Of a stretch of DNA of 64,000 bases, positions 245 to 55,662 are shown in pieces (within the stretch, counting starts at the first letter, position 1; every line of letters begins with the position of its first letter). Position numbers and translations under genes: made by a program. The stretch covers positions 151,001 to 215,000 of the forward strand of contig NC_087389.1 in NCBI RefSeq assembly GCF_963675165.1. The letters run 5' to 3'. Origin of the DNA: Halichondria panicea. Lineage: Eukaryota > Porifera > Demospongiae > Suberitida > Halichondriidae. The notes under the pieces are model-generated. The model did not search any database. It was not told where the DNA came from and was given only the letters and a program-made list of their open reading frames with translations.

Positions 245-1887
245 ATGAGTTCTCCTGTTACTGACTCAAGAGGTGTGCTCAGGGGAAGGTGTACCAGTTG
301 TAATTGCTCTGGGTATCAAGGTGGAACTGCTGGACTGAAGTGCAGCATCTGCACACACCCACCAGGGAAGCATCAGAACATCACACCAGGATTTGCTGCC
401 CAGACCTATGGTAAGCATTGAAGTGTTATAATCACTCGTTCTATAATGTTACTACTATAATTAAAGTTACTACAGGTTCAAGCCGACCAAGCAATACCAG
501 CGATGCTCATGGTGGATACAGTTATCAAAATGTATATCGGGTAATACCGTAAGCGTTCCAATTATAGAACCAGCCTCGGGTAGGACGCCCTCTTTTATAA
601 CGCCCATATACCACAAATAAAATCTTTTTTTTTGGTACATGTTTCTAGAAAAATAATTATTTTTTACTGGTTTTATAATTAGAACGTTTACGGTAACTAG
701 ATCTAGGTGTTTACTTTTTTTGTACAGCCTCCAGAAACAGGTCCATGCAGTGCAAACAACTGTAACAAGCCTTGCTACTATGATCCGAGTGTTGGGGAGT
801 TTGACTACTGCAGTCCATCGTGTAGAGACAAGCACTTGCTGCCCAAGGAAAAAAAGAGTCTACAAGATGATCTCAAAGCCTTTGAATATCAGGTGAAGTT
901 ACCTGTATCTGGTGGTGAAAAGCGTGGAATTGGAGCACACACAGCTGGTGGAGAGTCAGAGTATCAATCAACTCAAGCATCAGGAGGGAGGCATTCTTAT
1001 AGTAGTGCTGTGTCATCAGGTAGCCAAGCAACTACAAGATCCTCCAGCTCAGGCAAAGCCCATAATATTTCCCCAAATGTTAGTGAGTGTCTTGTTACTA
1101 CAGGAAGGCAGACGACAATCAAAGTGTTTTTTCAAAAGAGTCCATCAAATGATATTGGCCTCATTGTCAGTGAAGAGATATACAGATGTGACACATTTTC
1201 TGGGGTATGCCATTATACTTTTGATCAGTCAATGTACATATTTTGTATAATGCAGCTGCTGGTGCTTGGATTTGAGTACAATACTAAAGCTGAATACCTG
1301 ATTACTACGAATGAAGTACGTGTGCTGGATGTGATCACTTCATTGAATGACAAAAAAATCAGCCCGTTAACCTATAAAGAAGAAGCAACAAAGAATAGGT
1401 CATGTTCTCTGGAACTGAAAAGATGGATTTCACTTCCTCAACTGAAGCCACTTATGGACAAAGGTACTTTTGACATGCCTGAAATCAATTTATTGTTTTT
1501 GTTTTTTACAGCCGAATTCTCCAACCCAACAGCTCTTGTTGCTGTAATGAATCCAAAAGATTATCCCAATTGTTCCACTGCAAAAGGATTTGGACTGGGA
1601 ATCACTGTAAGCCATGACTGTTGCACATACTTCTTCTGTATTGATCATTCGTTTCTTAACAGTCTCTTCTTAGTACCACCTCTGTGGTTTCTGTGACAGC
1701 AAACACACCAGCACGATTCAGCAGACTAGAGTATGGAGATGAGATAATAGCCTATGGGTTTGTGAAGAAGAACAAGCTAGAAATTGGGAAGGATGCATTG
1801 AGTCTGACGACCAATCTGGAAGAAGCTGCAAAAGATGGAAAAACACTTGTCCTAGTAGTTAAGAGACCAGTGATAATTAACTTGTAG
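245..1887 (+). CDS. Gene A1: zinc ribbon, Cys/His finger and two PDZ-like domains
   Basis: Exons read as 245-410, 476-540, 728-1204, 1256-1463, 1512-1606 and 1663-1887, all with GT-AG borders and agreeing phases. The N-terminus carries the family signature M-x(4-5)-DSRG-x2-RG-x-C followed by C-x2-C-x-C and C-x2-C-x3-PPGKH, probably a zinc ribbon. Exon 3 has a second Cys-rich finger (CSANNC to YCSPSC). The remainder reads as two PDZ-like folds: the first has DIGLIVSEE and LVLGFEY; the second has the carboxylate-loop-like GFGLGIT followed by VTANTPARFSRLEYGDEIIAYG, the usual PDZ 'P-A-x-x-x-x-L-x-x-G-D-x-I' signature. No catalytic domain is visible. A role as an adaptor that brings partners to zinc-finger PARP/NADAR proteins is inference. 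It converges on gene C1 with a 68-bp gap. A MITE sits in intron 2. Confidence 0.75.
547..693. mobile_element. Short TIR element (MITE) in intron 2 of A1
   Basis: The ends are near-perfect inverted repeats of about 28 bp: CCGTAAGCGTTCCAATTATA at the left, and the right end reads CCGTAAACGTTCTAATTATA on the other strand. TA flanks both sides (545-546 and 694-695), as expected for the Tc1/mariner superfamily. The same intron in A2 (19861-19903) lacks it, so the insertion is specific to this copy. No coding capacity. Confidence 0.8.
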
Positions 1888-1955
1888 ATTAAGAATAACT
1901 GTGTCAAAGTGAAACTATATAATTATATGATTAGTAATAATTGTGTATAAAGAAG

Positions 1956-4139
1956 TCATTTGAATGTAATAACAAAACGTGGTAAATCATGAGCAGGGTT
2001 CTTCATCACTACAATGTCCCCATGTTTTGTATGATGAGTTCCAGTCTGTCCTAGCAACAGTTCATTCAGTAGTAGCTTCTTTCCACTCTTGCAGTAGCCG
2101 AGAGGAATGGTGGGAGATGTTGCGAAGTATTCCCCGGCACCATAGGCTTGGCCATTTCTCTTCTTTTGGTCATAGCCAGTAGTACAAATACTGTCGATAT
2201 TACTCTCTGCCGTTCCATGAAATGCAAGGCAAGTGTTTCTTTGGCTAGTGGGTAGAGACATCATTGCGCTCCTAAATTTATTGAATAAAGCACCTCCAGG
2301 CTTAGCGTGGTCGTTTTCTTTCATTGAGGCAACTTTGAGATTCGGGAATTTCTGGAGAAACTTTTGAACTTCCGGCATACTTGTAAGAATCCTCGCTGCA
2401 AATTGAATACAATAGTAGTAAAATAAAATTGTTAAGCCAGCTCTATATAATATTCATTATACCATCTCTGTTGGGGGCGTCCTTCTGTGCATGGTCTAGA
2501 CAACAGTAGTCATGGACTGTCCCTCCCTCTGTTTTCCTTCTGTTAGTGCATCCAGGTAGGCCACACTGATCTTCAACCTTATCAGCTGTAGCTGCAGGCA
2601 CAGGCATCACAAGTTATAACAACACCACCCATTCTATATCATGTATTATCAAGTATTCTAAAACAGCAGGAGTAACTTCTTGGTAAGAGTATACTAGGGA
2701 CTTTCCCAGGGGAATTTTCAGTGATTTTATCAAACCACACATAGTGGCCAGATAGCTGACAGGGACTCTCCCAGGGGAATTAAACCAATAAACAGGTGAC
2801 CCAACAGTTAAAACCAATCCTAAAATAAAGGTGACACAACAGTCCACTCTTCACATACCATAAATGCCTCTCCTCTTCCCCTCATCAGCATGGCTCTTCC
2901 CACAGTAGTCATAGGTGGCCCCAGTACTGCTGTCCACAAACTTGGGCTTCTGACAACCAGGGATGATGCACGATGAGCTGTCCTTAGGCCCAGCTTGAGA
3001 TGCAGTGGTAGTTCCAGCAACTGGTGGTGGAGCTGTGAAAAACTATAATCAAGGCTATAAATGCAATGAAACTTACTTACCCACAAGCCCTTGTTGCAAT
3101 CCAAGATTAGCATGTGTTCTCCCACAATAGTTCTCAAAAGGCCATGTATGTTTATTACAGCCAGGTAGTAGACAGTGTGTAACTCCTTTCACCACTTGCT
3201 GGTTCACCTCTACATGCAGGTACATACACAGTGAAACGTACAAGATGTTAGCTTACGTTGCCACAGAGCCTGTCTCCTCTGGTGCTCCATAGCATGAGTG
3301 ATACCACAGCACTCATGCACCGTACCACTCTCATCAACATAGCATGCATTTGGGCACTCAGCAATAGCACATGTGGCCCTTGATGTGGGTACAACAGGAG
3401 CCTGTACTGGAGTTGGTAGTGCTGCACCATCTTGGATATTCGCTGTAATAAGCATTAGCAAAACTACTAGATAGAGTTGAAGCTTACGTAATATTCCTCT
3501 CATCTTCCCCTCTTGGGCATGCGTCTTCCCACAGTAGTCATGGAGAACTCCAGTGCCACTGTCCATATACTTAGGCTGGAAACACTCGGGGATAATGCAC
3601 AGGGAATTGTCCTGTACGCCTTGTGCCACGGAGAACATACTTGAATCTATAGAGGGAGAAATAAATGGAATGGGTGAGTTTATAATTATAGGCGTACACT
3701 CACCTTGATAAAAGTTCTCTTCATATTGATTTCCATGCCCAAATTGATTATCTTCAAACATTCTCATACTTGCAGTCATTATATGAAAATGACAGTGTAT
3801 GCTTTCCATGCCCGAATTCAAGTCGAAGTCAACCGTCTGATTACAGTTGGGGAAGCCACATAATGATGATATTGGGGACGACTGAATGTTCAGAGGAGAT
3901 GCAAATGAGTTAGAAATTGGAAGAGCGACATGACTCTGATCCGTACAAGTGTTTCGGGTAGAAGTGTCTCGGATAAAAGTGTCTCCTTGCTGTGATTGCA
4001 GGGACTGGTCCAGCCTAGAGTGTCCTGCAGGACGACAGCCACATTGGGAGCACTTGAGACCACTGCTAGGGGGAGTGTAGCCTCCACAGCTAGAGCAATT
4101 CTTGCACCTTCCTCTGGAGATTCCACGGGCATCATCCAT
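1956..4139 (-). CDS. Gene C1: zinc ribbon, six Cys/His fingers and small PARP-like domain
   Basis: Seven exons on the minus strand: 4139-3704, about 3647-3488, 3442-3257, 3209-3081, 3032-2859, about 2592-2463 and 2395-1956. I chose the Met at 4139 (MDDARGISRGRC) because it aligns with the starts of genes A, D and E; the longer upstream reading is Arg-rich translation of a CT-rich leader. After the ribbon come six fingers of the form C-x3-C-...-HD[YFC]C-x2-[TS]HA, two of them degenerate. The last exon is a small ART/PARP fold: LAFHGTAES (His of the triad), GQAYGAGEYFATSP (Tyr) and a C-terminal HGDIVVMKN-...-FVITF strand. There is no Glu where D and F have one, so mono-ADP-ribosylation or loss of activity is more likely than polymer synthesis. 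It shares a divergent promoter interval with D1. Confidence 0.75.
3943..3990 (-). repeat. 15-bp coding VNTR in linker of C1
   Basis: Short tandem units of about 15 bp (agaagtgtctcggat-like) encode repeats of the type [RG]DTS[TI] between the ribbon and the first finger. C1 has about three units, C2 about four to five (23113-23172) and C3 about nine (39900-40031), so the linker length differs in every cassette. Confidence 0.75.
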
Positions 4140-7136: not shown

Positions 7137-8182
7137 CTAAGAGTTCATCTGTGATTGCATAAAGCACTGGTCACACCAGCCCTTCCCTGGGTTAGCTTGT
7201 TTCACTCGACACTTGGAGCACATCTTGCCACCAGCTGTCGCTGGCATGGACTGAGTAGAAGGGCCCAGGGGCATAGATCCACCAGAATGGGAGATAGGCA
7301 AACTATCATATGGTAGCATCGGAGGGCCTTGTCCTTGCATTTTAGAGTAGTAGCTCATGGCCCCACGTTTATCAGTAGAGGAAGGCCCACTGGAAATAGC
7401 AGATGATCCTGGTGGCTGTCTGTAAGCCCTTGGAGAGCTGCTGCCTTGTTGAGCTGCATGATTAGAATAAGTAGCAAGATTATAAAAAATAAAACCCACA
7501 CCTGTCTTCGTGGCAGCAACCTTCTGTTGGTGAAAGGATGATTGAAGTTCATTGAACTTCTTAGCACATGTCCTGCTACAGAAATCGTGGATCTTGTCAC
7601 CTTCTCTTCGTTTTGGAAAAGTACATCCAGGACATTTACAAGTTCCATAAGTTACTAGCTGAAGAGGTTGTTCATGAGCGTCATATCTTGGTTCGAACCC
7701 GGAGGCGCCCTGGGCCTGGGACATCATCTGACCAGACGTCACGGGTGCACCCGGTTGCTGAGGACGAGGCTTGCGTACTGCGAGTGAAACAAAGAACTAC
7801 GTTAGAAAAACGTAGATAGCTGGTGATAGATTTACATACAGAAATGATATAGAAACACATACGGACATGTCACATACGATGACAACCATAGCTAGCTAGC
7901 TATACGTATATACATACGTTTATCAGCTCCAGCGTGCGTATGAGCAGGGCAGCCACAGTATTCACAGTCAGTGTAGCTGTTTGGATCCTCAGACTGGTAC
8001 TTTTTGCACTCGTCTTTGTCACATTTACTGCAAGCTCCCAGTGCTATGATCCTGACATGCTCTCCTGGTGTATGGTTGCAGTACTCACAACGCAACTGTC
8101 CAGGCTGTGTGGGTGAAGTACGGTACTCTTTACACTCACAAGTGTTGCATTTGCCCCGCTGAACTCCTTGGATGTCCTTCAT
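7137..8182 (-). CDS. Gene E1: zinc-module-only protein
   Basis: Three exons on the minus strand: 8182-7918, 7777-7502 and 7453-7137. Exon 1 has the family start MKDIQGVQRGKC and two ribbon-like Cys clusters (CNTCEC...CEYCNHTPGEH and CSKC...CEYCGCPAHTH). Exon 2 has a Cys/His finger (CKCPGC...KIHDFCSRTC). Exon 3 is rich in Ser/Pro/Gly and ends with a small ribbon C-x2-C-x10-C-x2-C. There is no ART, NADAR or PDZ domain, so an adaptor or regulator of the neighbouring enzymes is a guess from context. It is convergent with D1, with a gap of about 130 bp. Confidence 0.7.
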
Positions 8183-8700: not shown

Positions 8701-9616
8701 TCATTTTGCAATCTTTTCCACACCATCTAACTCATACACAACAATAAACTGAGGCATAACAGCAGCTACATCAAACACCACTATCTCATCATAGTTCAGA
8801 GAGCCTCCAGCAACACCATGCACTGAATTGTATTCTTCTGGAGGACCAGTGAGAGTCGTGCTGTCTTGACGAATCTCGTACTTTGCACCACACGCCACCA
8901 AACACAGCAACTGAGCACGTACTTTATGGAGCGGATTGCCTTGAGTGTAGTCGTGACATTTTGAAGAATTAGGAGCGAGGTAGATTCCTTTACCAAATCG
9001 CTGAAATCGAGGAATATTGCTACCAATGCGATGGGAATCAAATCCATTGGAAGATATTCCACATATTCCACAGCCTCTGTCTTGACAACAATCATCACGC
9101 TCTAGTAAATTGCACGTTAGTTTAGTTCCATGGAAAAACAGATCGGAGTTTGTAGCCTTCTGGTCGCCTTGCTTGATTCGATCACTGTACTCGTGAAATG
9201 ATTTTGTCAGCTGCTTGTTCTGTACAGCATATATCGCCAATGGCACGGGAGGGGTGGGACATTTGGGAGTGATTTTCACCCATTCTTTCTTGAAGTGCTC
9301 CAATATGTCTTTGTGCGTTTGTTGCTCCGAGTCTAGTCGCTTGAGCATGCTTGACTCTTGAACTACTGCAGGAAAGTAAAGGAAAGTAAAATACTGTAAC
9401 TTCCAAACATTTACCTAACTTAAGCTTCACCGAACACTTACCTGTTCCCTTTCTTTGTGCTTGGTAGCACTCTGTACAGAGCTTGAAAGGATGGTTTCTT
9501 TCCTTCTCCCCACACTCATAACACAGCTTGTGGTCTAGTTTACAGGACCTGCACAGAAAGTCTCCTTGAAGACGAGGATGGGAGTCACATTGAAAGCAGA
9601 GTTTGTCCTCAGCCAT
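8701..9616 (-). CDS. Gene F1: double zinc ribbon and PARP-like domain (H-Y-E)
   Basis: Two exons: 9616-9442 and 9365-8701. The N-terminus (MAEDKLCFQC) holds four C-x2-C knuckles in about 55 residues, so two zinc ribbons. After a charged helical stretch comes the ART fold: FFHGTKLTCN (His), FQRFGKGIYLAPNSSK (Tyr) and LNYDEIVVFD (Glu, as in the YNEYIVYD strand of PARP1). The full H-Y-E triad suggests a competent ADP-ribosyl transferase. A Cys-rich loop (CCQDRGCGIC) between the His and Tyr motifs is shared with gene D and may bind metal. Divergent from G1 by 125 bp. The family start is clear; the substrate is unknown. Confidence 0.8.
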
Positions 9617-9741: not shown

Positions 9742-11015
9742 ATGGCAACAAGATCACTCACTGGTAAGCTGGTTAAACAACTGCCTGCTGCTGCTATTAT
9801 ATTTTTGTTTGCATATTAGCTTGCTGCCTAGGCCTTTTAAAATCATCATGAGCTGAAACCTTGACAACTAGACCATTCACCATCCCTTTTGCCCAGGTAC
9901 AGTATGCAGGTACCCAGGCTGCTTCAAGCCAGGATACAAGGAGCCCAGTGGCTACACACACAACTTCTGTGGACGAACACATGCTGAGATGTACAGGTCA
10001 ATTCCTCTCGCTTCCCCAACCCCCACCACCTCGGCATTCTCATACTCAAGTAAGTTTGCAAAACAATGATTTTCTATTACTTTTACTTGTTGTGTCTTCT
10101 CTTGCAGGACCGGCTAAGTCAGCACAAACAACAAAAAGTGCTCTGAAACCATTGAAGGCACTTCAAAAATATGTATCACCATCGTCAAACGAGATAAAGT
10201 TCTACAACAGTTATGACCCCTTCTACGAGTTTACAAACTTTTATCCAACATTTATGACAATTGATGGAAGTTCTTGGCCTTCTTCTGAACACTACTTTCA
10301 AGCTCAAAAATTTGTCGGTACTCCATATGTAGAGAAAATAAGAAAAATGTCTTCGGCTAGAGAAACGTTCCAGTTTTCGAGGAACCCAGCCGTATCTCGA
10401 TGGCGAAGGTCGGATTGGGACCAAGTGAAAGATGACATCATGCTGAAAGCTCTAAGATGCAAGTTTGGGCAATCAGACAGACTGCGTTCTCTTCTTTTTG
10501 GCACAGGAGACAAGAAACTCATTGAGCACACAGAGAATGATTCTTACTGGGGAGACGGTGGAGGAAAAGGAAAAGGCTTGAACAAACTCGGCGAACTGCT
10601 CATGAAAGTACGAAGAGAGCTCAAAGAAATGGAAAAAATAAAAAGCCCTTTGAAAAGAAGCAACTCATTTTCAATTTCTAGCACAAAATCATCAAAACCG
10701 AAGTACACAGATGATATGAACGCTTTGGGACGCACTTCTCCATTGTTATCTCGTCGCTTGTCAGGATCACAGAACTCTTTACACACACCAAGCAGCACCA
10801 CCTACAGAGTAGGCTACTCCTCTCCTTCACTGGCAAGCAGGCCTAGCGGTTTCACTCCTCGCACACAAACCACAAATGGTTCCGGCTATTTGTATACCAA
10901 ACCAGGCACTGCTAACTACACTCCTAGTCCAAGACAACATACCACTCCTTCTTACAAGCAACGAAGGGGAAATGATTCCACTGGAGTGGCTTCAATTTTT
11001 GCACTTTATAAATGA
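9742..11015 (+). CDS. Gene G1: Cys/His finger and NADAR (YbiA-like) domain
   Basis: Exons 9742-9763 (MATRSLT), 9897-10049 and 10108-11015; junction phases keep one frame. Exon 2 has one finger (CRYPGC...YTHNFCGRTHAEMY) and a short linker. Exon 3 carries the NADAR fold: FYEFTNFYPTF, WPSSEHYFQAQKF, RWRRSDWDQVK, KFGQSDRLRSLL, DSYWGDGG and LNKLGELLMKVR, in the order seen in E. coli YbiA. The Glu of SSEHY and the Asp/Trp/Gly of DSYWG are the conserved active-site positions. NADAR enzymes include N-glycosidases of riboflavin intermediates and hydrolases that remove ADP-ribose from guanine; which applies here is unknown. The last 130 residues are Ser/Thr/Pro-rich and differ between copies. Confidence 0.85.
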
Positions 11016-11288: not shown

Positions 11289-11332
<44 letters not shown>

Positions 11333-13698: not shown

Positions 13699-16600
13699 CA
13701 TCTTTGGGTTATCCCTACATAATCATGAACACAGAGTGTAGTTAATAAACACGAATATGTACATGCAGTATGAAGGTTGTGTAGTCCCTTAACACGATCC
13801 ACTAATATTGAAGTTACTGGGGTTTCCTCTAGAGAAAGGGTACACAGATATATACCTACCATCACGCTATCCTGACTCCGGTGAGGGTGTACTCAGAGCC
13901 GAGGTCTACAGCCACCCAGTTGTATGCACCAGCTGCAGGTATCTTCCAGTAGCTGATGGGATCATCTGTGCATGGAGGTAACACACAACTTGATATGAGT
14001 TAATAAAATGAAGGACCCTTTACTATATTACTAGGTAAAGGGTCATCTCATAAACAAACGAAAAACATAGTGACTCAAGGTAAAGGGTCATATTAATAAC
14101 AAACTCATAGTGACTCACTGTCCAACAGGCAGGTGGGTGGGTGCTGCTTGGTCCATGCACTGCAGTAGTCTGGAGTGGGTTGACACCATTCAGCCTTGTT
14201 CTTGAGCAGTGGATATGTGACTGTGCACAACAGAATAGTGCATGGTAGTGACTGTGCACAACAGAATAGTGTATGGTGGTTACTAGGAAGTCTATGATAA
14301 ATAAATGCACAACACAAGAGAGCTATACAGCTGCTACCCCCACAAGAGAGCTATATAGCTGCTACCCCCACAAGAGCTATACAGCTGCTACCCCCACAAG
14401 AGAGCTATACAGCTGCTACCCCCACAAGAGCTATATAGCTGCTACCCCCACAAGAGCTATACAGCTGCTACCCCCACAAGAGCTATACAGCTGCTACCCC
14501 CACAAGAGAGCTATACAGCTGCTACCCCCACAAGAGCTATACAGCTGCTACCCCCACAAGAGCTATACAGCTGCTACCCCCACAAGAGAGCTATACAGCT
14601 GCTACCCCCACAAGAGAGCTATACAGCTGCTACCCCCACAAGAGCTATACAGCTGCTACCCCCACAAGAGCTATACAGCTGCTACCCCCACAAGAGAGCT
14701 ATACAGCTGCTACCCCCACAAGAGAGCTATACAGCTGCTACCCCCACAAGAGCTATACAGCTGCTACCCCCACAAGAGAGCTATACAGCTGCTACCCCCA
14801 CAAGAGAGCTATACAGCTGCTACCCCCACAAGAGAGCTATACAGCTGCTACCCAATATGTTCAGTTGAACGTAGCATATGGACACTTACTGAAAAGATCG
14901 GCTGAAACTTTTTCTTTTGGAGAATCATGAGTCTGTTGTGACTGTTTGAAATGTATGCAGACAATATATATGTAATTATATGCAAGACTAAACATTATAA
15001 AGCTCATACATTAATGTTAGTCTACTTAGAGAATATTATTTGTTCATTAGTGGACACATAATATATAATTTTAGTGCTCAGAGAAATACTTATTAGTGCC
15101 TAAGAAGACAGAGAAGAGAATAATGGTATTCACCTTTGGCACTCTGAGTGGCTTCCCACGCTGTTGAACAAACATGGAAATGAATTCATCCCTCTTGGCC
15201 TCAGGATGCTGTTTAGCTATGCTGATGGCCGTCTGTGTGTGGGTGGTGTGGGTGGTGTGTGTGTGGGAGAAATGCAAGGTATAAGTATAAGTGTACATGG
15301 TCTAGAATTATATTATATCATGAGAGTGGTTTACTGGTAGCTATAGAGATATACACAGGTGTGTGGGTAGTGTGGTGTGTATGTGTGGGTGGTGGTGTGG
15401 TGCGTGTGTGTGTGGGTGGTGTGGTGTGTGTGTGTGTGGGTGTACCTGTCCATTGGAGACTTGTTGGGTCGGGTCTCCTCCAAACTCCAACAACAGCTGT
15501 GCCACATTTTTCCTAAGTATTCAGAGGGAGTACAGTACATGACCTAATACGCTAACACATCAAGTCCTTAATTAGATATCAATACACACAAGTCCTTGTA
15601 AGGTGATTAGCTGAGCTCACTTGAAGTATCTGATGGCTTCGTGCATGGGAAATGTGCCTGAAAGGAGAGAAATTGTTAATTCTTCACTCATGCTTGACCA
15701 ATGTTGGTGTAGTCAAGTAAGCAGTACGTATCCAACGATGCTCACCTTTGTTATGATCAAAGATATTTGGGTCCATTCCAGCCTCCAGTAAGATCTCAAT
15801 GATCTCCTTACGACCTAGAGAGAAAGTGATGAAAGCTAGGGTCAGTCTTAGTATGCAATGACATACTATACAGTCCAAGGATACCATCCAACATCATTAG
15901 ATATAAATGATTGCTCAGTTTGGGGCTACCTTAATTGTTAGAAACAAAGAAGTAGTTGTTTGGTGAATGCATTGTAGACTAACCACTCTTTGCTGCCTCG
16001 ATGATGGGTTTGGTCTGCTTGAGTGTACGAACATCAGCATCAATCAGCAGTGGCACTGCATCTGCCATTGTAATGTGTGTGTGTGTATGTAAAAGAATCA
16101 GTATAATAATTATGTTAGGAATATCAGTAAGCCCCTCAACAAAAGAAACAACACCTGAATGCTGAAGGCTAAACCAATAACAATCTTCGATCATACTGAC
16201 AACTCACCTATCTTGTTGAATCTAACGGCAAGGTCAAAGGGCGAATCTCCGGCCATGTTAGTGACGAGCACGTTGCAGTTATGTTGCAGAAGCTTGTTGA
16301 TGGTGAAGGTCTTACCAGGAGGGCAGTACTGACAGGTATAGTGCAGGGGAGTGTTCCCTTCACGATTGGCTATTTCTGCCTATAGAGAGAGATTAGTGTT
16401 AATGGACACTAATATCAAGTATTCCCATGACACTATCAAGGACCACTACACCACCATAAGGGTACCACACTGTCATTGCAAGTACAATGTATGAAATCAC
16501 TTGAGATAAGTTTTGGAGCATCTCAGAAGCTCTGTACGTATGTCTTCCATCCACACTTACCAGAGCTCCGTTAGCCAGTAGTAGGTCAACAATGTCTGAG

Positions 16601-17768
16601 CGATTGTGCCAGGCAGCAAAGTGGAGGGCAGTGTTCCTAATAGTAACAGGGAGGAGTGAACATTAAAAGACAGTCATTAATTTGTCGTTATGAGGTAGGG
16701 ACACAATTAAAAGTTGGCAATATCTCGAATTGGTAGTATCAGTTTATGGTGCTCTAACACGGCAGTCACTATAAGAGGTGTGTGTAGGGTTGTATGCTAG
16801 GTGTATGTAACTGGCAGCTAGCACACAACTACACACTGGCTTAGGCTCACACTGGCTTAGGCTCACACTGGCTTAGGCTCACACTGGTACTACACACTGG
16901 CTTAGGCTCACACTGGTACTGAACGTTGGCTTAGGCTCACACTGGTACTGAACGTTGGCTTAGGCTCACACTGGCAGTATAAATATTGTACGTTACTAAC
17001 AATAGCTAATAATATTATCCACTTAGCAACCATACCCTTGATTGTCCATGGTGAACAGCTCTGCAGAATACTGCAGGAGAGTGTATACCACGTCCTTGTG
17101 TCCATGCAGTACAGCTAGCATGAGTGCAGTGGAGCCAGTGTCATCACGATAGTCCACATTGATGCTAGAGGACTGCTTCTTGTTCTGGATCACCAGAGGA
17201 GGGGGAGAGTCGGAGAGACCATCACTCAACTTGTCAGAGGAGAGCAGTTTCTGGAGCTTGGACTGTCCCTTGAGCAGTTGCTGCAGGACAAATATTGATG
17301 CATTACATTGTACATGGGTGGCTTTTCCTAACACAGTGATGGAATTGGTTTTACAGTTTATGCAGGTGATATAGATGCATAATCTATACAGGTGCATTTA
17401 GTTAGCAGTTAAAATAAGCAGTGAGAGTGTCTTGCAAATGAGCCACTGTTGTTTCAGTATTATCTACCGTTTCACAGACAAATATAAAAATTATCAACCG
17501 CTACTTTGCATTTTACGATAGGACAGTGATTAGGCAGTTTTGCTGTTTGATAATTACACCAGTGACATTTACTATATCCAACACACACTGACAAATCTAG
17601 ATCTAGCTTTATAGTATAGTCATGCAACTTGCTAGAGTATTAGTCTGTGGCCCAGTGCAGTGTGGGTAGAGTATTTTTAGATAGTTTATTGCTAGCTATT
17701 CCACTCACCTCCACTTTACTATTGTTTCCAGCTGAAGCTGCCTCTAACAGTTGTGTTTCTTTCCCCAT
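13699..17768 (-). CDS. Ankyrin-repeat protein with F5/8-type C-like fragment, 5' part
   Basis: The start MGKETQLLEAASAGN (17768) is followed by exons with about six ankyrin repeats (for example STALMLAVLHGHKDVVYTLL, NTALHFAAWHNRSDIVDLLL and RKEIIEILLEAGMDPN). An exon at about 14118-14212 (WCQPTPDYCSAWT) and one at 13863-13965 (YWKIPAAGAYNWVAVDLGSE) then look like the beginning of an F5/8-type C (discoidin) domain. With the splice sites I infer, the last of these runs into TGA just after GVRIA before a GT donor, so the chimera with URB2 may be interrupted. Alternatively this ankyrin transcript ends there. The start motif resembles ANKS1-type proteins, but no SAM or PTB domain is visible. It is divergent from B1. 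The full-length parent gene is presumably left of this window. Confidence 0.6.
14313..14853. repeat. 26/28-bp minisatellite, about 20 units
   Basis: Tandem units of CACAAGAG(AG)CTATACAGCTGCTACCCC fill an intron of the ankyrin gene. Units come in 26-bp and 28-bp versions that differ by one AG. The long open frame across it is a by-product of the repeat. Cassette 2 lacks this region because of the deletion at 32413. Confidence 0.95.
15227..15445. repeat. GT-rich simple sequence in ankyrin-gene introns
   Basis: Two stretches of imperfect GTGTGGGTGGTGTGG-type repeats (about 15231-15270 and 15358-15443) flank a short unique piece. They lie in introns on either side of the exon encoding TAISIAKQHPEAKRDE. 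No coding meaning. Confidence 0.8.
16826..16976. repeat. Tandem repeat, unit GGCTTAGGCTCACACT plus variable spacer
   Basis: About seven units of a GGCTTAGGCTCACACTGG core, some joined by TACTGAACGTT, in an ankyrin-gene intron. The same intron in cassette 2 (33350-33536) has a different expansion, with a TATACTATACACATT spacer. Confidence 0.9.
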
Positions 17769-17974: not shown

Positions 17975-19335
17975 ATGGAACATGTGGAAGCATTTAAGCA
18001 GAAAGTACAGGAGCTAGGAATAATTGTATACTTTAAGTCTCTGATTGCCTCTGATCCAGGAGTATGTGTGCAGTGTCACTCTCCCTGTGACTCTGAATTT
18101 TGCTCTCCACACTGTGAAATGAAGTATTGGGATGAGTTCAACCATCAGTACACCTACCATTCAGGTATAATGACCTGGGACTCCATTTGGTGCAGTACTA
18201 GTCTATTTATCTATTTAATCTACTTGCAGGGAAGACTCCACTGTGCAAATTTCCCAGATGTTTCAAGACTTGCTATGTTGAGAATCACGGTCGTGTTCAT
18301 GACTATTGCAGCAAATCTCATGCTGGAGAGCACCAAAAGATGAAAGAAGTAGCTCAAAGACAGCAACACACTTCCAGAAACCAGAGGGGCAAGGGTAACT
18401 TGTGGAGAGGGGGCCATCAACTAGGAGGCAGAGGTGGAGGTGGAGCAGGGACATCTCAAGCTGGGCGATGTCAGCAAGGTATGTAGCTACTTAATTGTTT
18501 TAATTTTTAAGTCACTTTTTCTGCTCCATATATAGGGCATACTCGAGGAGGTACCAACTATTCTCACTGCTCGGATAGTCATGGAACAATCTATTTCTAC
18601 AATCGTGGCGAACCATACTACGAGTTTACTAACTTCTACAATGGTGCTGCATTCAGTCTCGATGACAGTGAATGGCCTACTACTGAGCACTATTTCCAAG
18701 CCCAGAAATTCGTTGGTACACCTTACGTTCGCAAGATTCGGAATGCCTTTGGGCCGCGAGATGCTTTCGAATTGTCCCGCAATCCAGCTATCTCTCGTTG
18801 GAGGAGGAGCGATTGGGAAGTTGTCAAGATGGATGTGATGAGAAAGGCTCTTTTCGCTAAGTTTACTTCACACACATTTTTGAAAAATAAGCTTCTTGAT
18901 ACTGGTAAAAGAGAGCTTGTTGAACGATCTCCACATGATAGCTACTGGGGAGACGGTGGTGATGGTACAGGAGAGAACCATCTTGGAAGACTTCTCATGG
19001 AACTGAGGGCAAAGCTGCAAGGTGGTCAGTACAAGGATGTGGAACGAGATGGTATGCAAGCAGGAACGAGTTGTGGCGTTCCATCATATAACAAATTGAC
19101 GAGGAATCCATTACGTGACAACACACAATGTAAAGTAGAAGATGAAGTTGAAGACATGGATTATGAGAATACTGGGTTTCCAACTGGGTCACTGGTGTTA
19201 CTAGATGATTCGAATGAAAACGCATCTGACTATCCACCGCTTCCAACGCATTTCAATGGGAAACCATTAATACCCTCCCCATCACCTACGCCCCCTACTG
19301 GTACTGGTGCTGATGCTGATGCCGTTGGCACTTGA
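17975..19335 (+). CDS. Gene B1: Cys-rich module, Cys/His finger and NADAR domain
   Basis: Exons 17975-18164, 18230-18479 and 18536-19335. Exon 1 has a helical start and a Cys cluster (CVQCHSPCDSEFCSPHC). Exon 2 has one finger (CKFPRCFKTCYV...VHDYCSKSHAGEH) and a Gly/Arg-rich linker. Exon 3 carries a NADAR domain: YYEFTNFY, WPTTEHYFQAQKF, RWRRSDWEVVK, DSYWGDGG and HLGRLLMELR. It is a diverged paralogue of G in the same cassette, with the finger on the N-terminal side in both. The tail after the NADAR fold is acidic and Pro-rich and differs completely from that of B2. Probable nucleotide-sugar or ADP-ribose glycosidase; substrate unknown. Confidence 0.85.
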
Positions 19336-21065: not shown

Positions 21066-21133
21066 ATTAAGAATAACTGTGTCAAAGTGAAACTATATAA
21101 TTATATGATTAGTAATAATTGTGTATAAAGAAG

Positions 21134-33349: not shown

Positions 33350-33536
33350 ACTGGCTTAGGCTCACACTGGTATACTATACACATTGGCTTAGGCTCACAC
33401 TGGTATACTATACACATTGGCTTAGGCTCACACTGGTATACTATACACATTGGCTTAGGGCTCACACTGGTATACTATACACATTGGCTTAGGCTCACAC
33501 TGGTATACTATACACATTGGCTTAGGCTCACACTGG
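33350..33536. repeat. 33-bp tandem repeat in ankyrin-gene intron
   Basis: Six units of GGCTTAGGCTCACACTGG followed by TATACTATACACATT. The core is shared with 16826-16976 in cassette 1 but the spacer is different, so the two arrays expanded independently after duplication. Confidence 0.9.
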
Positions 33537-37962: not shown

Positions 37963-40192
37963 TCATTTGAATGTAATAACAAAACGTGGTAAATCATGAG
38001 TAGGGTTCTTCATCACTACAATGTCCCCATGTGTTGTATGATGAGTTCCAGTCTGTCCTAGCAACAGTTCATTCAGTAGTAGCTTCTTTCCACTCTTGCA
38101 GTAGCCGAGAGGAATGGTGGGAGATGTTGCGAAGTACTCCCCGGCACCATAGGCTTGGCCACTTCTCTTCTTTTGGTCATAGCCAGTATAGTACAAATGC
38201 TGTCGATATTACTCTCTGCCGTTCCATGAAATGCAAGGCAAGTGTTTCTTTGGCTAGTGGGTAGAGACATCATTGCGCTCCTAAATTTATTGAATAAAGC
38301 ACCTCCAGGCTTAGCGTGGTCGTTTTCTTTCATTGAGGCAACTTTGAGATTCGGGAATTTCTGGAGAAACTTTTGAACTTCTGGCATACTTGTAAGAATC
38401 CTCGCTGCAAATTGAGTAGTGAAACAAAATTGTTAAGCCAGCTTAATTTATATACCATCTCTGTTGGGGGCGTCCTTCTGTGCATGGTCTAGACAACAGT
38501 AGTCATGGACTGTCCCTCCCTCTGTTTTCCTTCTGTTAGTGCATCCAGGTAGGCCACACTGATCTTCAACCTTATCAGCTGTAGCTGCAGGCACAGGCAT
38601 CACAAGTCATAACTATTCTATATGCATGTATTATCAAGTATTCTATAACAGCAGGAGTAACTTCTTGGTAAGAGAGTATACTAGGGACTTTCCAAGGGTA
38701 ATTTTTCAGTGATTTTATCAAACCACGCATAGTAGCCAAATAGTGACCCAACAGTTAAAACCAATCCTAAAATAAAGGTGACACAACAGTCCACTCTTTA
38801 CATACCATAAGTGCCTCTCCTCTTCCCCTCATCAGCATGGCTCTTCCCACAGTAGTCATAGGTGGCCCCAGTACTGCTGTCCACAAACTTGGGCTTCTGA
38901 CAACCAGGGATGATGCACGATGAGCTGTCCTTGGGCCCAGCTTGAGATGCAGTGGTAGTTCCAGCAACTGGTGGAGGAGCTGTGAAAAGCTGTAATCAAG
39001 GCTATAAATGCAATGAAAATTTACTTACCCACAAGCCCTTGTTGCAATCCAAGAGTGGCATGTGTTCTCCCACAATAGTTCTCAAAAGGCCATGTATTTT
39101 TATTACAGCCAGGTAGTAGACAGTGTGTAACTCCTTTCACCACTTGCTGGTTCACCTCTGCATGCATGCAGGTACATGTACATACATGTCTAATGTACAA
39201 GATGGTAGCTTACGTTGCCACAGAGCCTGTCTCCTCTGGTGCTCCATAGCATGAGTTATACCACAGCACTCGTGCACCGTACCACTGTCATCAACATAGC
39301 ATGCATTTAGGCACTCAGCAATAGCACATGTGGCCCTTGATGTGGGTACAACAGGAGACTGTACTGGAGTTGGTAGTGCTGCACCATCTTGGATATTCGC
39401 TGTAATAAGTGGAGGAAGCATTAGCACACCTACTAGATAGAGTTGGAGCTTACGTAATATTCCTCTCATCTTCCCCTCTTGGGCATGCGTCTTCCCACAG
39501 TAGTCATGGAGAACTCCAGTGCCACTGTCCATATACTTAGGCTGGAAACACTCGGGGATAATGCACAGGGAATTGTCCTGTGCGCCTTGTGGCACGGAGA
39601 ACATACTTGAATCTATAGAGGGAGAAATAAATGGAATGGGTGAGTTTATAATTATAGGCGTATACTCACCTTGATAAAAGTTCTCTTCATATTGATTTCC
39701 ATGCCCAAATTGATTATCTTCAAACATTCCCATACTTGCAGTCATCATATGAAAATGACAGTGTATGCTTTCCATGCCCAAATTCAAGTCGAAGTCAACC
39801 GTCTGATTACAGTTGGGGAAGCCACACAATGATGATATTGGGAACGACTGAATGTTCAGAGAAGATGTAGAAATTGGAAGAGCTACATGACTCTGATCCA
39901 TAGAAGTGTCTCGGATAGAAGTGTCTCGGGTAGAAGTGTCTCCAGTAGAAGTGTCTCGGATAGAAGTGTCTCGGGTAGAAGTGTCTCGGGTAGAAGTGTC
40001 TCCAGTAGAAGTGTCTCGGATAAAAGTGTCTCCTTGCTGTGATTGCAGGGACTGGTCCAGCCTAGAGTGTCCTGCAGGACAACAGCCACATTGGGAGCAC
40101 TTGCAATTGAGACCACTGCTAGGGGGAGTGTAGCCTCCACAGCTAGAGCAACTCTTGCACCTTCCTCTGGAGATTCCACAGGCATCATCCAT
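37963..40192 (-). pseudogene. Gene C3: ribbon, fingers and PARP-like domain, frameshifted
   Basis: All exons of C are present from MDDACGISRGRC (40192) to the stop at 37963. In the PARP exon, two extra nucleotides at about 38188-38190 (agccagtatagtac against agccagtagtac) shift the frame just after NIDSIC. The His motif LAFHGTAES is then followed by unrelated residues, and the Tyr motif and last strand are lost. The linker holds the longest DTS repeat of the three copies. The finger and ribbon part could still be made as a truncated protein. Confidence 0.8.
39900..40031 (-). repeat. Expanded 15-bp coding VNTR in C3 linker
   Basis: About nine units of agaagtgtctc-(gga/ggg/cag)-t encoding [RG]DTS[TI], against about three in C1. 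All length changes are multiples of 15 bp, so the frame is kept. Confidence 0.85.
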
Positions 40193-48549: not shown

Positions 48550-50251
48550 ATGAGCTCCAGCACTGATTCCAGAGATGTGCAGAGAGGCGGTTGCAATTGC
48601 CCTCAATGTGACTGTGGCCAGTATGATGGAGGAACTGAAGGAAGGAAATGCAATCACTGTGGTCACCCTCCTGGAAAGCATGTGAACATGAACACAGGCA
48701 TTGCTTCTTTGGCACCAACAACTACTTCGTTCTTACCATCTTATCCTATACAAGATGGTTACAGCCCCCAATTTACTACCCACTCTGCACCCGATCAATC
48801 GACTATGTCGATGTCACCTCAAGGAGCTGTGCAACCACGACCGAGTCAATTACGAAGTCCCTTCAAGCGGCCACGACCAACTACTGCTTCCCCACCAGCA
48901 TTACGTTCACCTGCACCTCGGCTAGCCCTAGCCCGTATGTTACTCTAATAATTTTATATAAATGATTAAATTATATTCTTATGCTTACAGTTCCACTTGA
49001 CCAGCAGTGTAAGCTCAGTGGATGCTCAAGGAGGAGATACACTGAAGGTGGTCGTGTACATGACTGTTGTGGGAAAACACATGCGACGGAGTATGCCAAA
49101 CAAAATTGTAAAGTTCTCATGCTGTAACAGTACTTTTCATACTCTTTAGACATACTTCTATAGGTCATATTACATCCGAGTTGCAATGCAAGACTCCTGG
49201 ATGCTACAAACAGAGGTACCCAAATCGCCAAGGAGGACATTTTGATTACTGTGCCAAATATTGTCGTGACAGTGGAGGCAAACCACAAGGGTCAATGCTT
49301 GCTTCAGGTAAGAGCTACTAAATGTGTACATGTTATAATACTATAAATTTATAGCTTCAATGCCGGACATGGCTCTGACAGGCGGCTATGGTATCTGTCA
49401 GTTCCCTCAGTGTGGAAGACAAAAGTACTGTGATCCTGCCAACGGGAGGGTGCATGACTTCTGTGGGAGATCCCATGCTTACCGAGCCAGAGTGGAAGGT
49501 ACTTATTGCTGTGATGTAGATATTATGTAGCTCTGGGTATTTCCCAGGTGATTCCCCCAAATTGATAGTGTGCGGGCCTATTGTTATTATTGTGTTATGC
49601 TTGTTTGTATTCATACCTCCAGGAATCACCACTGCTGTGAATATCAGAGTAGCCACTGCACAAGAGCTCTCCACAATTGCAGGGAAGTTCAAGCAGTCAT
49701 GGGCTAGTGCAAAAGGGGCTTGTCCAGCAGTTTCATTTGTCTACATCATCAGCAACTCCCAGCTTACACAAAGATGGACCACATACAGAAGTGGGTTACA
49801 GAAGAAGGACGTTGAAGAGTACTACCATGGTACTAAACTAACATGCAACATTACAGCGACTTCAACTCTGTGTAACGACCAAAATTGTGGTGCATGTGGT
49901 ATCTCAAACACTGGACTGGATCGAAGATACATTCGAAAGAACATTAACTACCAGAGATTTGGTCATGGCTTTTACCTCGCTCCCAATTCATCAAAATGCC
50001 ATGACTACACCCAAGGATGCTCCTCGTATAGAGCTATGCTGTTGTTTGATGTTTGTCCTGGAAATAAGTACAACCTCAAGAAAAACAATGAGAAATTAAC
50101 AGGTCCACCTCAAGGATTCGATTCTGTTTATGGACAGACAGGAGGAGGCAACTTGAACTATGAAGAACTAGTAGTGTACAACGCTGATGCTGCCCTTCCA
50201 AAATGTATTATTGTGTACCAAAAGGACGGTGAAGGAAAAATAGCAAAATAG
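48550..50251 (+). CDS. Gene D3: ribbon, three fingers and PARP-like domain (H-Y-E)
   Basis: Intact copy of D. Exon 1 is shorter than in D2 (the FHSTMVMDDTKF block and a second linker block are absent), giving a linker about 36 residues shorter. Fingers CKLSGC...HDCCGKTHA, CKTPGC...FDYCAKYC and CQFPQC...HDFCGRSHA are complete. The PARP exon has YYHGTKLTCN, FQRFGHGFYLAPNSSK and LNYEELVVYN. Several replacements relative to D2 (for example NINYQRF, GQTGGGN) make this the most diverged D catalytic domain. Its divergent partner C3 is now about 8 kb away. Confidence 0.85.
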
Positions 50252-51777: not shown

Positions 51778-53189
51778 TCACGGTCTCTTTACAACTAAGA
51801 CAAGTGTTTTTCTAACTATTGCAGCCAGATCCAGATCAACATTGGACAACATTCCTGTCCCTGTTTCCAACACATAGTGTTTCACAAACCCATAGGTAAT
51901 TATCTCATCTTCGTACTCTAGTCCGCTAAATCGTGCTGGCGAGTTCTTTGTCACAGAACTCACAGTGGTGGTAGTAAGATGAGACTGTAAAAAAAGTGAA
52001 TGATCAAAATAACAAATAGTGCATATGGCTTACAATGACAGTCAGTCCAAATCCTTTTTGAGTTGAACAATTCTGATATTCTCTCGGATTTTGAACAGCA
52101 ACAAGAAAGGTTGGATTACAGTATTTGGCTGCATAAGAAATAAAACGATGTCATGCAGTATGTCACAAGAGCCAATTTCCAACACAATCAAAAAGTACCG
52201 TTGTCCATGAGTGGCTTAAGTTGAGGAAGTGCAATTGATCTGTTTAGTTCCAGAGAACATGACCTATTCTTTGTTGCTTCTTCTTTATAGGTTAACGGGC
52301 TGACTTCTTTGTCGTTCAATGAAGTGATCACATCCAGCACACGTACTTCACCACTCATAATCAGGTGTTCAGCTTTAGTATTGTATTCAAATCCAAGCAC
52401 CAGCAGCTGCATTATACAACACAATTGTGTACACTGACCATACAATAGAGGCGCATACCCCAGTAAATGTGGGACATCTGTACGTCTTTTCACCGACAAT
52501 GAGGCCAATATCTTTTTTTTTTACGTTTTGAAACAACACTTTGACCACCACCTGCCTTCCTGTAGCAATAAGACATTTACATTAATACCTTTGTAAGGGC
52601 GTTACCTGAGCCGGAGGATCTTGAAGTTGCCTGGTTACCTGATGACAGAACAGCACCATGAGAACGTTGACCACTCCCTCCTAATGCTGGAGCTAGTGTC
52701 TTCTTGGTGGCAGCAACCTTTTGTTGTTGAAAGGATGATTGAAGATCGTTGAACTTCTTAGCACATGTCCTGCTACAGATCTTGTCACCTTCTCTTTGCT
52801 TTGGAAAAGTACACCCAGGACATTTACAAGTTCCATGCATTATTTTCTTGGCAGGTTGTTCATGAGCATCATATCTTGGTTGGAACCCGGAGGCGCCCTG
52901 GGCCTGGGACATCATCTGACCAGACATCATGGACATCATCTGACCAAACGTCAAGGACATCAGCTGGCCAAACGTCAAGGACGCACTTGAGTGTTGGCTT
53001 TGAGGACGGGGTTTGCGTACTGCGAGTTAATTTAACCAAGAGCTATACGATATGATGGGTGAAAAACATAGCTAGCTAGCTATACGTACGACTTACGTTT
53101 ATCAGCTCCAGCATGCAATTGAGCATAACAGCCACAGTATTCACAGTCAGTCAAGTGTTGCATTTGCCTCGCTAAACACCTTGGATGTC
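51778..53189 (-). pseudogene. Gene H3: chimera of E-like zinc modules and A-like PDZ domains
   Basis: Found only in cassette 3, between E3 and F3. A degraded exon 1 (53189-53092, MKDIQGV-stop-RGKCNT, with an internal deletion) and a finger exon (PAKKIMHGTCKCPGC) resemble E. The following exons (about 52562-52459, 52409-52200, 52130-52035 and 51986-51778) match the PDZ-like region of A: KKDIGLIVGEK, LLVLGFEYNTK, GFGLTV and NSPARFSGLEYEDEIITYG. The finger has lost HDF (KICSRTC), and exon 1 has a stop and lacks its second ribbon Cys. Probably a decaying relic of an ancestral ribbon-finger-PDZ gene or a recombination product. Confidence 0.65.
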
Positions 53190-53316: not shown

Positions 53317-54232
53317 TCATTTTGCAATCTTTTCCACACCATCTAACTCATACACAACAATAAACTGAGGCATAACAGCAGCTACATCAAACACCACTAT
53401 CTCATCATAGTTCAGAGAGCCTCCAGCAACACCATGCACTGAATTGTATTCTTCTGGAGGACCAGTGAGAGTCGTGCTGTCTTGACGAATCTCGTACTTT
53501 GCACCACATGCCACCAAACACAGCAACTGAGCACGTACTTTATGGAGCGGATTGCCTTGAGTGTAGTCGTGACATTTTGAAGAATTAGGAGCGAGGTAGA
53601 TTCCTTTACCAAATCGCTGAAATCGAGGAATATTGCTACCAATTCGATGGGAATCAAATCCATTGGAAGATATTCCACATATTCCACAGTTTGTGTCTTG
53701 ACAACAATCATCACGCTCTAGTAAATTGCACGTTAGTTTAGTTCCATGGAAAAACAGATCGGAGTTTGTAGCCTTCTGGTCGCCTTGCTTGATTCGATCG
53801 CTGTACTCGTGAAATGATTTTGTCAGCTGCTTGTTCTGTACAGCATATATCACCAATGGCACGGGAGGGGTAGGACATTTGGGAGTGATTTTCACCCATT
53901 CTTTCTTGAAGTGCTTCAATATATCTTTGTGCGTTTGTTGCTCTGAGTCTAGTCGCTTGAGCATGCTTGACTCTTGAACTACTGCAGAAGATTAAAGGAA
54001 AGTAAAATACCGTAACTTCCAAACATTTACCTAACTTAAGCTTAACCGAACACTTACCTGTTCCCTTTCTTTGTGCTTGGTAGCACTCTGTACAGAGCTT
54101 GAAAGGATGGTTTCTTTCCTTCTCCCCACACTCATAACACAGCTTGTGGTCTAGTTTACAGGACCTGCACAGAAAGTCTCCTTGAAGGCGAGGATGGAAG
54201 TCACATTGAAAGCAGAGTTTGTCCTCAGCCAT
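53317..54232 (-). CDS. Gene F3: double zinc ribbon and PARP-like domain (H-Y-E)
   Basis: Intact, with start MAEDKLCFQC at 54232 and stop at 53317. Exon 1 ends at a donor near 54059. The catalytic exon carries FFHGTKLTCN, FQRFGKGIYLAPNSSK and LNYDEIVVFD. Nearly identical to F1 (differences such as CQDTNCGIC for CQDRGCGIC), so F1 and F3 are the likely functional copies. Divergent from G3 by about 125 bp. Confidence 0.85.
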
Positions 54233-54356
54233 CTTGTGTGTGTACTATTGTGTGTAGGGGAATTCCCAGGGGAACTCCCGTTACATCAACTGCAAACAAC
54301 ACCTCACTGCAAATGTCTAGCTCTTGGCTAAGCTGCAAGCTCAATTAACTTTTGCA

Positions 54357-55662
54357 ATGGCAACAAGATCACTCACTGGTAAGCTGGTTAAACAACTGCC
54401 TGCTGCTGCTATTATGTCTTTGTTTGCATAATTATTAGCTGCATGCCTAGGCCTTTCTATATATAAAATTATCATGAGCTGAAACCTTGACAACTAGACC
54501 ATTCACCATCCCTTTTGCCCAGGTACAGTATGCAGGTACCCAGGCTGCTCCAAGCCAGGATACAAGGAGCCCAGTGGCTACACACACAACTTCTGTGGAC
54601 GAACACATGCTGAGATGTACAGGTCAATTCCTCTCACTTCCCCCACCCCAACCACCTCGGCATTCTCATACTCAAGTAAGTTTGCAAAACAATGAATTTC
54701 TATTACTTTTACTTATTGTGTCTTCTCTTGCAGGACCGGCTAAGTCAGCACAAACAACAAAAAGTGCTCTGAAACCATTGAAGGCACTTCAAAAATATGT
54801 ATCACCGTCATCAAACGAGATAAAGTTCTACAATAGTTATGACCCCTTCTACGAGTTTACAAACTTTTATCCAACATTTATGACAATTGATAGAAGTTCT
54901 TGGCCTTCTTCTGAACACTACTTTCAAGCTCAAAAATTTGTCGGTACTCCATATGTAGAGAAAATAAGGAAAATGTCTTCAGCTAGAGAAACGTTCCAGT
55001 TTTCGAGGAACCCAGCTGTATCTCAATGGCGAAGGTCAGATTGGGACCAAGTGAAAGATGACATCATGCTGAAAGCTCTAAGATGTAAGTTTGGGCAATC
55101 AGACAGACTGCGTTCTCTTCTTCTTGGCACAGGAGACAAGAAACTCATTGAGCACACAGAGAATGATTCTTACTGGGGAGACGGTGGAGGGAAAGGAAAA
55201 GGCTTGAACAAACTCGGCGAACTGCTCATGAAAGTACGACGAGAGCTCAAAGAAATGGAGAAAACAAAAAGCCCTTTGAAAAGAAGCAACTCATTTTCAA
55301 TTTCTAGCACAAAATCATCGAAACCGAAGTACACAGATGATATGAACACTTTGGGACGCACTTCTCCGTTCTCATTATCTCGTCGCTTGTCAGGATCACA
55401 GAACTCTTTACACACACCAAGCAGCACCCACAGAGTAGACTACACACCAAGCAGCACCCACAGAGTAAGATTCTTATCTCCTTCACTGGTACACAGGCCC
55501 CCCCTCAGCGCCACTTCTCGCACACAACCCAACAAACAAGGCACTACTAGTCCAAGACAACAGACCACTCCTTCTAACAGAACTCAATCTACCACAAGGC
55601 GACACGTGGGAAATGATTCCAGTCAAGTGGCTTCTGCTCTTACACACATATATAGATATTAG
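54357..55662 (+). CDS. Gene G3: finger and NADAR domain
   Basis: Exons 54357-54378, 54523-54675 and 54734-55662. Finger and all NADAR motifs are present; one change near the core is SQWRRSDW for SRWRRSDW, where B and other G copies have Arg. The Ser/Pro tail contains a local duplication (HTPSSTHRVDYTPSSTHRVR) and ends ALTHIYRY. Convergent with the URB2-like gene, gap about 78 bp. Confidence 0.85.

What the first reader, a model, noticed from the sequence alone, without database searches (positions are those of the whole stretch)
245..55662. Tandem array pairing PARP-type writers with NADAR-type hydrolases
Seen: three head-to-tail cassettes, each with three ART/PARP-fold genes (C, D, F), two NADAR genes (G, B), a PDZ gene (A) and a zinc-only gene (E), with a fourth cassette implied at the left edge. 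Known: PARP-type enzymes transfer ADP-ribose, and some NADAR proteins remove ADP-ribose from guanine in nucleic acids or hydrolyse N-glycosidic bonds (YbiA/COG3236). Inference: this is a dedicated ADP-ribosylation system with attached erasers, possibly for defence against nucleic acids or for self/non-self chemistry, undergoing rapid copy-number evolution. I know of no described animal locus with this layout.
Basis: partly seen in the sequence, partly recalled or inferred. Interest (0 to 1): 0.92.

Follow-up and report, generated by a model that had tools for sequence, protein, structure and literature searches.

The report
Animal ADP-ribose writer–eraser gene array
Three tandem copies of an animal gene cassette hold PARP-type enzymes, which attach ADP-ribose, beside NADAR-type enzymes, which in other organisms remove ADP-ribose from guanine; most of the genes carry a common zinc finger found almost nowhere else in this genome, so they may form one matched writer-and-eraser system.

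Summary
The array is real: three tandem units of about 19-26 kb, gene order G A C D E F B, 5-17% diverged in the long aligned stretches. The implied fourth cassette is not there: the left-edge piece is gene G of unit 1. PARP domains in C, D, F and NADAR domains in G, B pass Pfam cut-offs; the PDZ call in A does not.

In searches of this 131-Mb animal genome it turned up only in the array, plus two truncated copies of C. Writers and erasers thus share a private module. Catalytic residues are kept (F, D: H-Y-E; NADARs: E-K-E); domain dN/dS is 0.09-0.33. Each unit has one broken PARP (D1, F2, C3); all six NADAR domains are open. The NADARs are YbiA-type, unlike the genome's NADAR on contig 4. RibA and RibD were not found, so riboflavin clean-up is unlikely.

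Best reading: reversible ADP-ribosylation, probably of guanine in nucleic acid, perhaps for defence. Chemistry, expression and other animals are untested. Closest known: bacterial DarT1-NADAR and YarT-YbiA.

The parts
1..25 (+). last bases of G1 (fingers + RGG + NADAR), NADAR gene of unit 1, which lies just left of the window (NADAR at C13:150285-150713)
245..1696 (+). A1: N-terminal zinc module + zinc finger + PDZ-like; 3' end not resolved
   Evidence: PDZ only from A2
1956..4139 (-). C1: zinc modules + PARP (H-Y-D by eye), open model of 543-550 aa
4338..6057 (+). D1: zinc fingers + PARP, broken (20-base gap in exon 2; 851-base insert 6058-6908 next to the catalytic Glu codon)
7137..8182 (-). 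E1: zinc modules only
8701..9616 (-). F1: Cys-rich N-terminus + PARP (H-Y-E), 279 aa, exons 9616-9442 and 9365-8701
9881..11015 (+). B1: zinc finger + NADAR; the ATG seen in B2 is absent, true start unknown
15979..17768 (-). ankyrin-repeat gene of unit 2 (3' exons uncertain)
17975..19335 (+). G2: two Cys-rich fingers + RGG stretch + NADAR, 412 aa, exons 17975-18164, 18230-18478, 18536-19335
19564..20874 (+). A2: zinc modules + PDZ-like; 3' end not resolved
21134..23330 (-). C2: N-terminal zinc module + five zinc fingers (a sixth, degenerate) + PARP, 552-554 aa, seven exons
23568..25397 (+). D2: N-terminal zinc module + three zinc fingers + PARP (H-Y-E), 510 aa, five exons
25510..26461 (-). E2: zinc modules only; first exon runs into a stop earlier than in E1 and E3, may be damaged
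26764..27635 (-). F2: broken copy (10-base gap at the catalytic His motif, frame lost)
31102..32281 (+). B2: zinc finger + NADAR, 373 aa, exons 31102-31264, 31323-32281
32448..34390 (-). ankyrin-repeat gene of unit 3 (model only)
34604..36185 (+). G3: two Cys-rich fingers + RGG + NADAR, open model of 439 aa
36391..37703 (+). A3: zinc modules + PDZ-like, diverged; stop codon in the finger exon
37963..40192 (-). C3: zinc fingers + PARP, broken (frame lost between the H and Y motifs)
48550..50251 (+). D3: N-terminal zinc module + three fingers + PARP (H-Y-E), open models of 452-490 aa
50323..51396 (-). E3: zinc modules only
51781..53026 (-). E/A chimera: E-type zinc exon followed by A-type PDZ-like exons
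53317..54232 (-). F3: Cys-rich N-terminus + PARP (H-Y-E), 279 aa
54507..55662 (+). B3: zinc finger + NADAR; start codon unresolved as in B1

Best explanation
The locus encodes a self-contained system of reversible ADP-ribosylation. PARP-family transferases (F, D, C) put ADP-ribose on a target, and YbiA-type NADAR hydrolases (G, B) take it off. The target is reached through a zinc finger that C, D, G, B, A and E share and that was found almost nowhere else in this genome. Because every NADAR tested in the papers read acts on guanine-linked ADP-ribose, the mark is most likely on guanine in RNA or DNA. The RGG stretch of G fits RNA contact (inferred). Several writers with attached erasers, whole-unit duplication and decay of single copies fit an inducible conflict or defence system in which the erasers protect the cell's own nucleic acid. 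Shown: the domains, catalytic residues, low dN/dS, finger homology and its confinement. Inferred: the substrate, joint action and the defence role.
For: PARP and NADAR domains over cut-off. H-Y-E invariant in F1, F3, D2, D3. Counterparts of the NADAR residues E43, K50 and E125 (named in PMC11543638) are invariant in six of six array NADARs. A profile of the eight C/D fingers finds the fingers of all six NADAR genes at E 4.9e-14 to 5.1e-12 among 5342 ORFs from 224 kb of this genome; the best hit outside the array and the C fragments is 0.4. In the whole genome the finger queries hit the array in 34 of 35 rows and 31 of 34 rows. F/D-type PARP hits lie only in the array, 7 of 7 rows. Open full-length models exist for two copies of each PARP. 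dN/dS is 0.09-0.33 for the NADAR and 0.19-0.30 for the PARP domains, against 0.65-0.85 for the B tails (small counts, no significance test). NADARs reverse guanine ADP-ribosylation in DNA and RNA (passages of PMC11543638; PMC11125620; PMC11833690). PARP10, a PARP-type enzyme, can modify a base (PMC13036486). Weak matches of G and B to models of anti-phage NADARs (NF053876, 72 and 70 bits against a cut-off of 240; PADLOC PDC-M42C) do not decide anything.
Against: No expression, protein or substrate data. No second animal genome could be searched, so conserved linkage is untested. The closest solved relatives of F (PARP4, tankyrases) are recalled as protein modifiers. The base mark of PARP10 is on uracil, which the NADARs tested there did not reverse. 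E. coli YbiA acts in vitro but did not protect cells from DarT1 or YarT. F lacks the shared finger. B1 and B3 lack the start codon seen in B2. Gene models are predictions without transcripts. G and B fit the riboflavin N-glycosidase model above its cut-off.
Confidence: 0.45

Rival explanations
1. Protein- or small-molecule-directed ADP-ribose signalling: C, D and F modify proteins or make a diffusible NAD derivative, and G and B clear a different ADP-ribose species. The shared finger only brings them to one complex.
For: F resembles PARP4 and tankyrase by sequence. PMC9503650 argues that many phage NADARs act on soluble ADP-ribose derivatives.
Against: The NADARs tested in the papers read act on guanine-linked ADP-ribose. 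Nothing of NAD metabolism stood out among the ORFs read and the Pfam matches listed; no dedicated search was made.
Confidence: 0.3
2. Erasers only matter: the NADARs defend against foreign ADP-ribosylating toxins or viruses, and the PARPs are decaying companions.
For: Three of nine PARP copies are broken against none of six NADAR domains. The difference is not significant (Fisher p about 0.2, my arithmetic).
Against: Two open copies of each PARP type remain, with dN/dS 0.19-0.30. Decay is not special to PARPs: A3 is damaged and E2 may be.
Confidence: 0.12
3. Ordinary neighbours: a lineage-specific multigene family with a common finger whose PARP and NADAR members have unrelated jobs.
For: Finger exons are short and the E/A chimera in unit 3 shows exon shuffling within the array.
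Against: The finger was found nowhere else in the genome except C fragments (only the best candidates are scored there). By chance a NADAR locus would lie within 10 kb of one of about 18 other PARP clusters with probability near 0.3% (my count from the 56 rows, which are lower bounds).
Confidence: 0.1
4. YbiA-type riboflavin housekeeping: G and B destroy reactive riboflavin intermediates.
For: TIGR02464 (riboflavin intermediates N-glycosidase) matches G and B above its cut-off, 124.7 and 125.6 bits against 73.7.
Against: GTP cyclohydrolase II (PF00925) and RibD_C (PF01872) were not found in the genome, searched exon by exon, while the controls rang in 10 of 14 and 14 of 14 genomes.
Confidence: 0.03

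Closest known systems
DarT1-NADAR (DarTG1) toxin-antitoxin (PMC11543638)
   Same: a transferase of the ART superfamily next to a NADAR hydrolase that reverses guanine ADP-ribosylation
   Different: bacterial two-gene operon; the transferases here match the PARP model; its NADAR is of the BC4488 type (Asp), while G and B are YbiA-type (Glu); here there are multi-exon animal genes, several writers and a shared zinc finger
YarT-YbiA toxin-antitoxin of myxobacteria (PMC11125620)
   Same: H-Y-E transferase next to a YbiA-type NADAR
   Different: YarT is a 114-residue stand-alone toxin of the HYD1/Rhs group; F, D and C match the PARP domain and carry zinc modules; toxicity and rescue untested here
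Tandem PARP14-like duplications of sponges and lancelet (PMC4245714, PMC13224862; passages)
   Same: PARP duplication in lower animals, proposed as antiviral
   Different: those sponge PARPs carry macrodomains, some WWE or RRM; Pfam reported none of these in the ORFs scanned here, and NADAR genes are present instead
PARP7/12/13 (ZAP) zinc-finger PARPs (PMC4245714)
   Same: zinc fingers N-terminal to a PARP domain
   Different: C3H1 fingers there; a different Cys/His finger without a Pfam match here, also present on the hydrolases
SNA-3 of nematodes (PMC9303266, passages)
   Same: animal NADAR-domain protein, linked to RNA
   Different: three NADAR domains, no PARP partner named in the passages read, trans-splicing role

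Membership tests
PARP (PF00644) | significant match to the catalytic domain | tested here: met
   C, D, F over cut-off
PARP (PF00644) | H-Y-E catalytic triad | tested here: met
   invariant in F1, F3, D2, D3; C has Asp at the third place by my reading, so not met for C; D1, F2, C3 are broken
PARP (PF00644) | ADP-ribosyl transferase activity | not testable with these tools
   needs purified protein
NADAR, YbiA subfamily | domain match | tested here: met
   PF08719; PDB 2b3w E. coli YbiA 1.2e-34 for G2
NADAR, YbiA subfamily | catalytic Glu, Lys and last-strand Glu | tested here: met
   invariant in six of six array copies; residues from PMC11543638
DarT1-NADAR | BC4488-type NADAR with catalytic Asp | tested here: not met
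   array NADARs have Glu at that place
DarT1-NADAR | DarT-family toxin | tested here: not met
   transferases match the PARP model; no DarT model was reported for them by Pfam, NCBIfam or PADLOC
YarT-YbiA | ART next to a YbiA-type NADAR | tested here: met
YarT-YbiA | YarT/HYD1-type small ART | tested here: inconclusive
   PARP match and multi-domain architecture speak against it; no direct comparison with YarT was made
toxin-antitoxin system | toxicity of the transferase relieved by the hydrolase | not testable with these tools
   experiment needed
riboflavin YbiA | host makes riboflavin | tested here: not met
   RibA and RibD_C not found; the sequence model TIGR02464 itself is met

The most novel reading that the evidence does not exclude
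An animal counterpart of the bacterial ART-NADAR module: PARP-family enzymes that write guanine ADP-ribosylation on nucleic acid, paired with NADAR erasers, with a private zinc finger as the common address that marks self from non-self.
Probability: 0.28. Interest if true: 0.92.

Novelty: new variant of a known kind. Interest (0 to 1): 0.7.

Why it matters
What animal NADAR proteins do is an open question: PMC11125620 says in its discussion that the physiological roles of NADARs in eukaryotes, animals included, are unclear. A locus where NADAR erasers sit among PARP writers and share a private finger names candidate writers, erasers and an address module at once. It makes guanine ADP-ribosylation in an animal directly testable.

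Tried and rejected
Rejected: a fourth cassette; riboflavin housekeeping; the NADAR on contig 4 as a sister locus (31-33% identical, several exons; no PARP row lies on contig 4; a loose pattern scan of 60 kb there found no finger and two loose PARP-pattern matches that the family search did not support).

Led nowhere: relatives of F/D, of C and of the D fingers in viral contigs gave none. B has 12 NADAR relatives there (33-51% identical), and 3 of those 12 records also hold a PARP domain; the two regions read look like jumbo phages with a PARP of another type (WGR, macro and jumbo-phage labels are recall). NCBIfam and PADLOC named no PARP of the array. The NADAR tree used 36 rows: 6 array, 1 contig-4, 22 of 80 bacterial and 7 of 12 viral (eight viral rows were picked, one dropped for stops). 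It contains no other animal, so it shows one origin of G and B but not where they came from; the contig-4 row is a very long branch. Species identity: none of the 20 genome notes listed of 1,090 papers gives 131.5 Mb in the abstract start shown. Papers: PMC11125620 parts 1-3 of 6; PMC11543638 passages and section 12; PMC9503650 passages and section 31; passages of PMC11833690, PMC13036486, PMC13224862, PMC4245714, PMC9303266; the others as search listings only. That no paper describes a PARP-NADAR locus in an animal rests on the listed rows only (an open-licence library).

Full report
WHERE. The window is contig 13:151001-215000 of a 131.5-Mb, 39-contig genome. Wnt genes match on contigs 3, 6 and 12 (10 rows), so the organism is an animal.

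ARRAY. DNA self-comparison finds gene-sized repeats, mostly 16.5-26.6 kb apart. The 300-base reference stretches are 60-100% identical between copies, most 93-99%; aligned stretches over 1 kb are 83-95% identical. With 30 kb on the left and 20 kb on the right, the repeated region runs from about -6063 to 58252, and both ends meet the same place in the unit, near 13697. There are therefore three units: -6063 to 13696, 13697 to 32412 and 32413 to 58252. The order in each is [ankyrin (-)] G (+) A (+) C (-) D (+) E (-) F (-) B (+).

GENES. Pfam places PF00644 in C, D, F and PF08719 in G and B, all above cut-off. Exon models with GT-AG introns of 47-134 bases join zinc exons to catalytic exons in G2, D2, B2, F1 and F3; C2 has seven exons. 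Open full-length models were also found for G3 and D3 and C1, and the first exon of G1 is open. No transcript was available. B1 and B3 lack the ATG of B2, so their starts are unknown. The 3' end of A is unresolved and its PDZ match is below cut-off.

SHARED FINGER. Reading the upstream exons showed short Cys-rich units of the form C-x4-C-x(10-16)-C-x3-H/C in A, B, C, D, E and G. Pfam gives them no family above cut-off; E has a weak zf-FCS match. A profile made only from eight C and D fingers, run against 5342 ORFs from 224 kb of this genome, finds G at 4.9e-14 to 4.5e-13, B at 3.7e-12 to 5.1e-12, A at 6.5e-6 to 3.7e-4 and E at 7.5e-5 to 1.3e-4. The best hit outside the array and the C fragments is 0.4. 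The reverse profile (G and B) finds single C and D fingers at 1.8e-11 and weaker. Genome-wide, finger queries hit the array in 34 of 35 rows and 31 of 34; the rest are two C fragments on contig 1 and one chance-level row (E 0.65). These searches score only the best candidates. A second zinc module at the N-terminus is common to A, C, D and E. F lacks the finger, but its PARP is 44% identical to that of D, and such PARPs were found nowhere else in the genome (7 of 7 rows in the array).

ACTIVITY. H, Y and E are invariant in F1, F3, D2 and D3. C reads H-Y-D by eye. The distal-ribose Glu, phosphate Lys and last-strand Glu named in PMC11543638 align with invariant residues of all six NADARs, which makes them YbiA-type. 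Between units dN/dS is 0.22-0.33 (G) and 0.09-0.13 (B) for the NADAR domain, 0.23 (F1-F3), 0.30 (D2-D3) and 0.19 (C1-C2) for PARP, 0.65-0.85 for the B tails and 0.44-0.61 for whole NADAR exons. The counts of changes are small and no significance test was made. Each unit has one broken PARP: D1 (20-base gap in exon 2 and an 851-base insert next to the catalytic Glu codon), F2 (10-base gap at the catalytic His motif) and C3 (frame lost between the H and Y motifs). All six NADAR domains are free of stops. Decay is not confined to PARPs: A3 has a stop in its finger exon and E2 may be damaged. One broken PARP per unit and per gene has a chance of about 7% given three breaks (my arithmetic), so nothing is built on it.

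ORIGIN. G and B form one clade (100/99) next to bacterial YbiA-type rows; the bacterial rows printed are 49-59% identical to G2 or B2, while the multi-exon NADAR on contig 4 is 31-33% identical to them. Without other animals in the tree, transfer from bacteria is possible but not shown. RibA and RibD_C were not found in the genome.

MECHANISM. Shown: domains, kept residues, low dN/dS, common finger, confinement. Inferred: that writers and erasers act on one target, that it is guanine in RNA or DNA (from the activity of the NADARs tested in the papers), and that the role is defence. Against: F looks most like PARP4 and tankyrase; the NADARs tested did not reverse the PARP10 mark on uracil; in cells, rescue by NADARs was mostly specific to the partner, E. 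coli YbiA rescuing from neither DarT1 nor YarT and one other NADAR rescuing from DarT1 only in part.

PLACE AMONG KNOWN SYSTEMS. It works like, but is not a member of, DarT1-NADAR (wrong NADAR type, no DarT match). It resembles YarT-YbiA in pairing an H-Y-E transferase with a YbiA-type NADAR, but the transferases match PARP and membership was not directly tested. Duplicated PARP14-like genes in sponges and lancelet are in print, and NADARs in sponges are noted in print. A PARP-NADAR array with a common finger was not found in the listings.

Noticed in passing
window 51781-53026 (-): Extra gene in unit 3 that joins an E-type zinc exon to A-type PDZ-like exons, a product of shuffling inside the array.
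   Followed up: partly
L020:4163-4816 and L021:4897-5547 (contig 1): Two truncated copies of the end of C (last finger, cut in L021, and PARP), 85-87% identical to C and lying within a longer stretch that the two share with each other.
   Followed up: partly
window 28629-29024: Integrase-core ORF (rve, just under cut-off) of a retroelement between F2 and B2.
   Followed up: no
window 44867-45646: Long 8/16/24-base tandem repeat in the stretch with a GC skew of 0.36 at 44-46 kb.
   Followed up: no
window 47573-47905 (+): PHD-finger ORF over the Pfam cut-off in the insert between C3 and D3.
   Followed up: no
window 11137-13722 and 55743-58217 (-): ORFs of what looks like a larger gene repeated at the unit ends; the right copy may continue to about 60 kb. 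It recalls a nucleoporin, but the three ORFs scanned gave no Pfam match above cut-off.
   Followed up: partly
L037:4732-15224 and L038:5229-13491: Two viral records with a PARP-domain gene and a YbiA-type NADAR within 10 kb of each other.
   Followed up: partly
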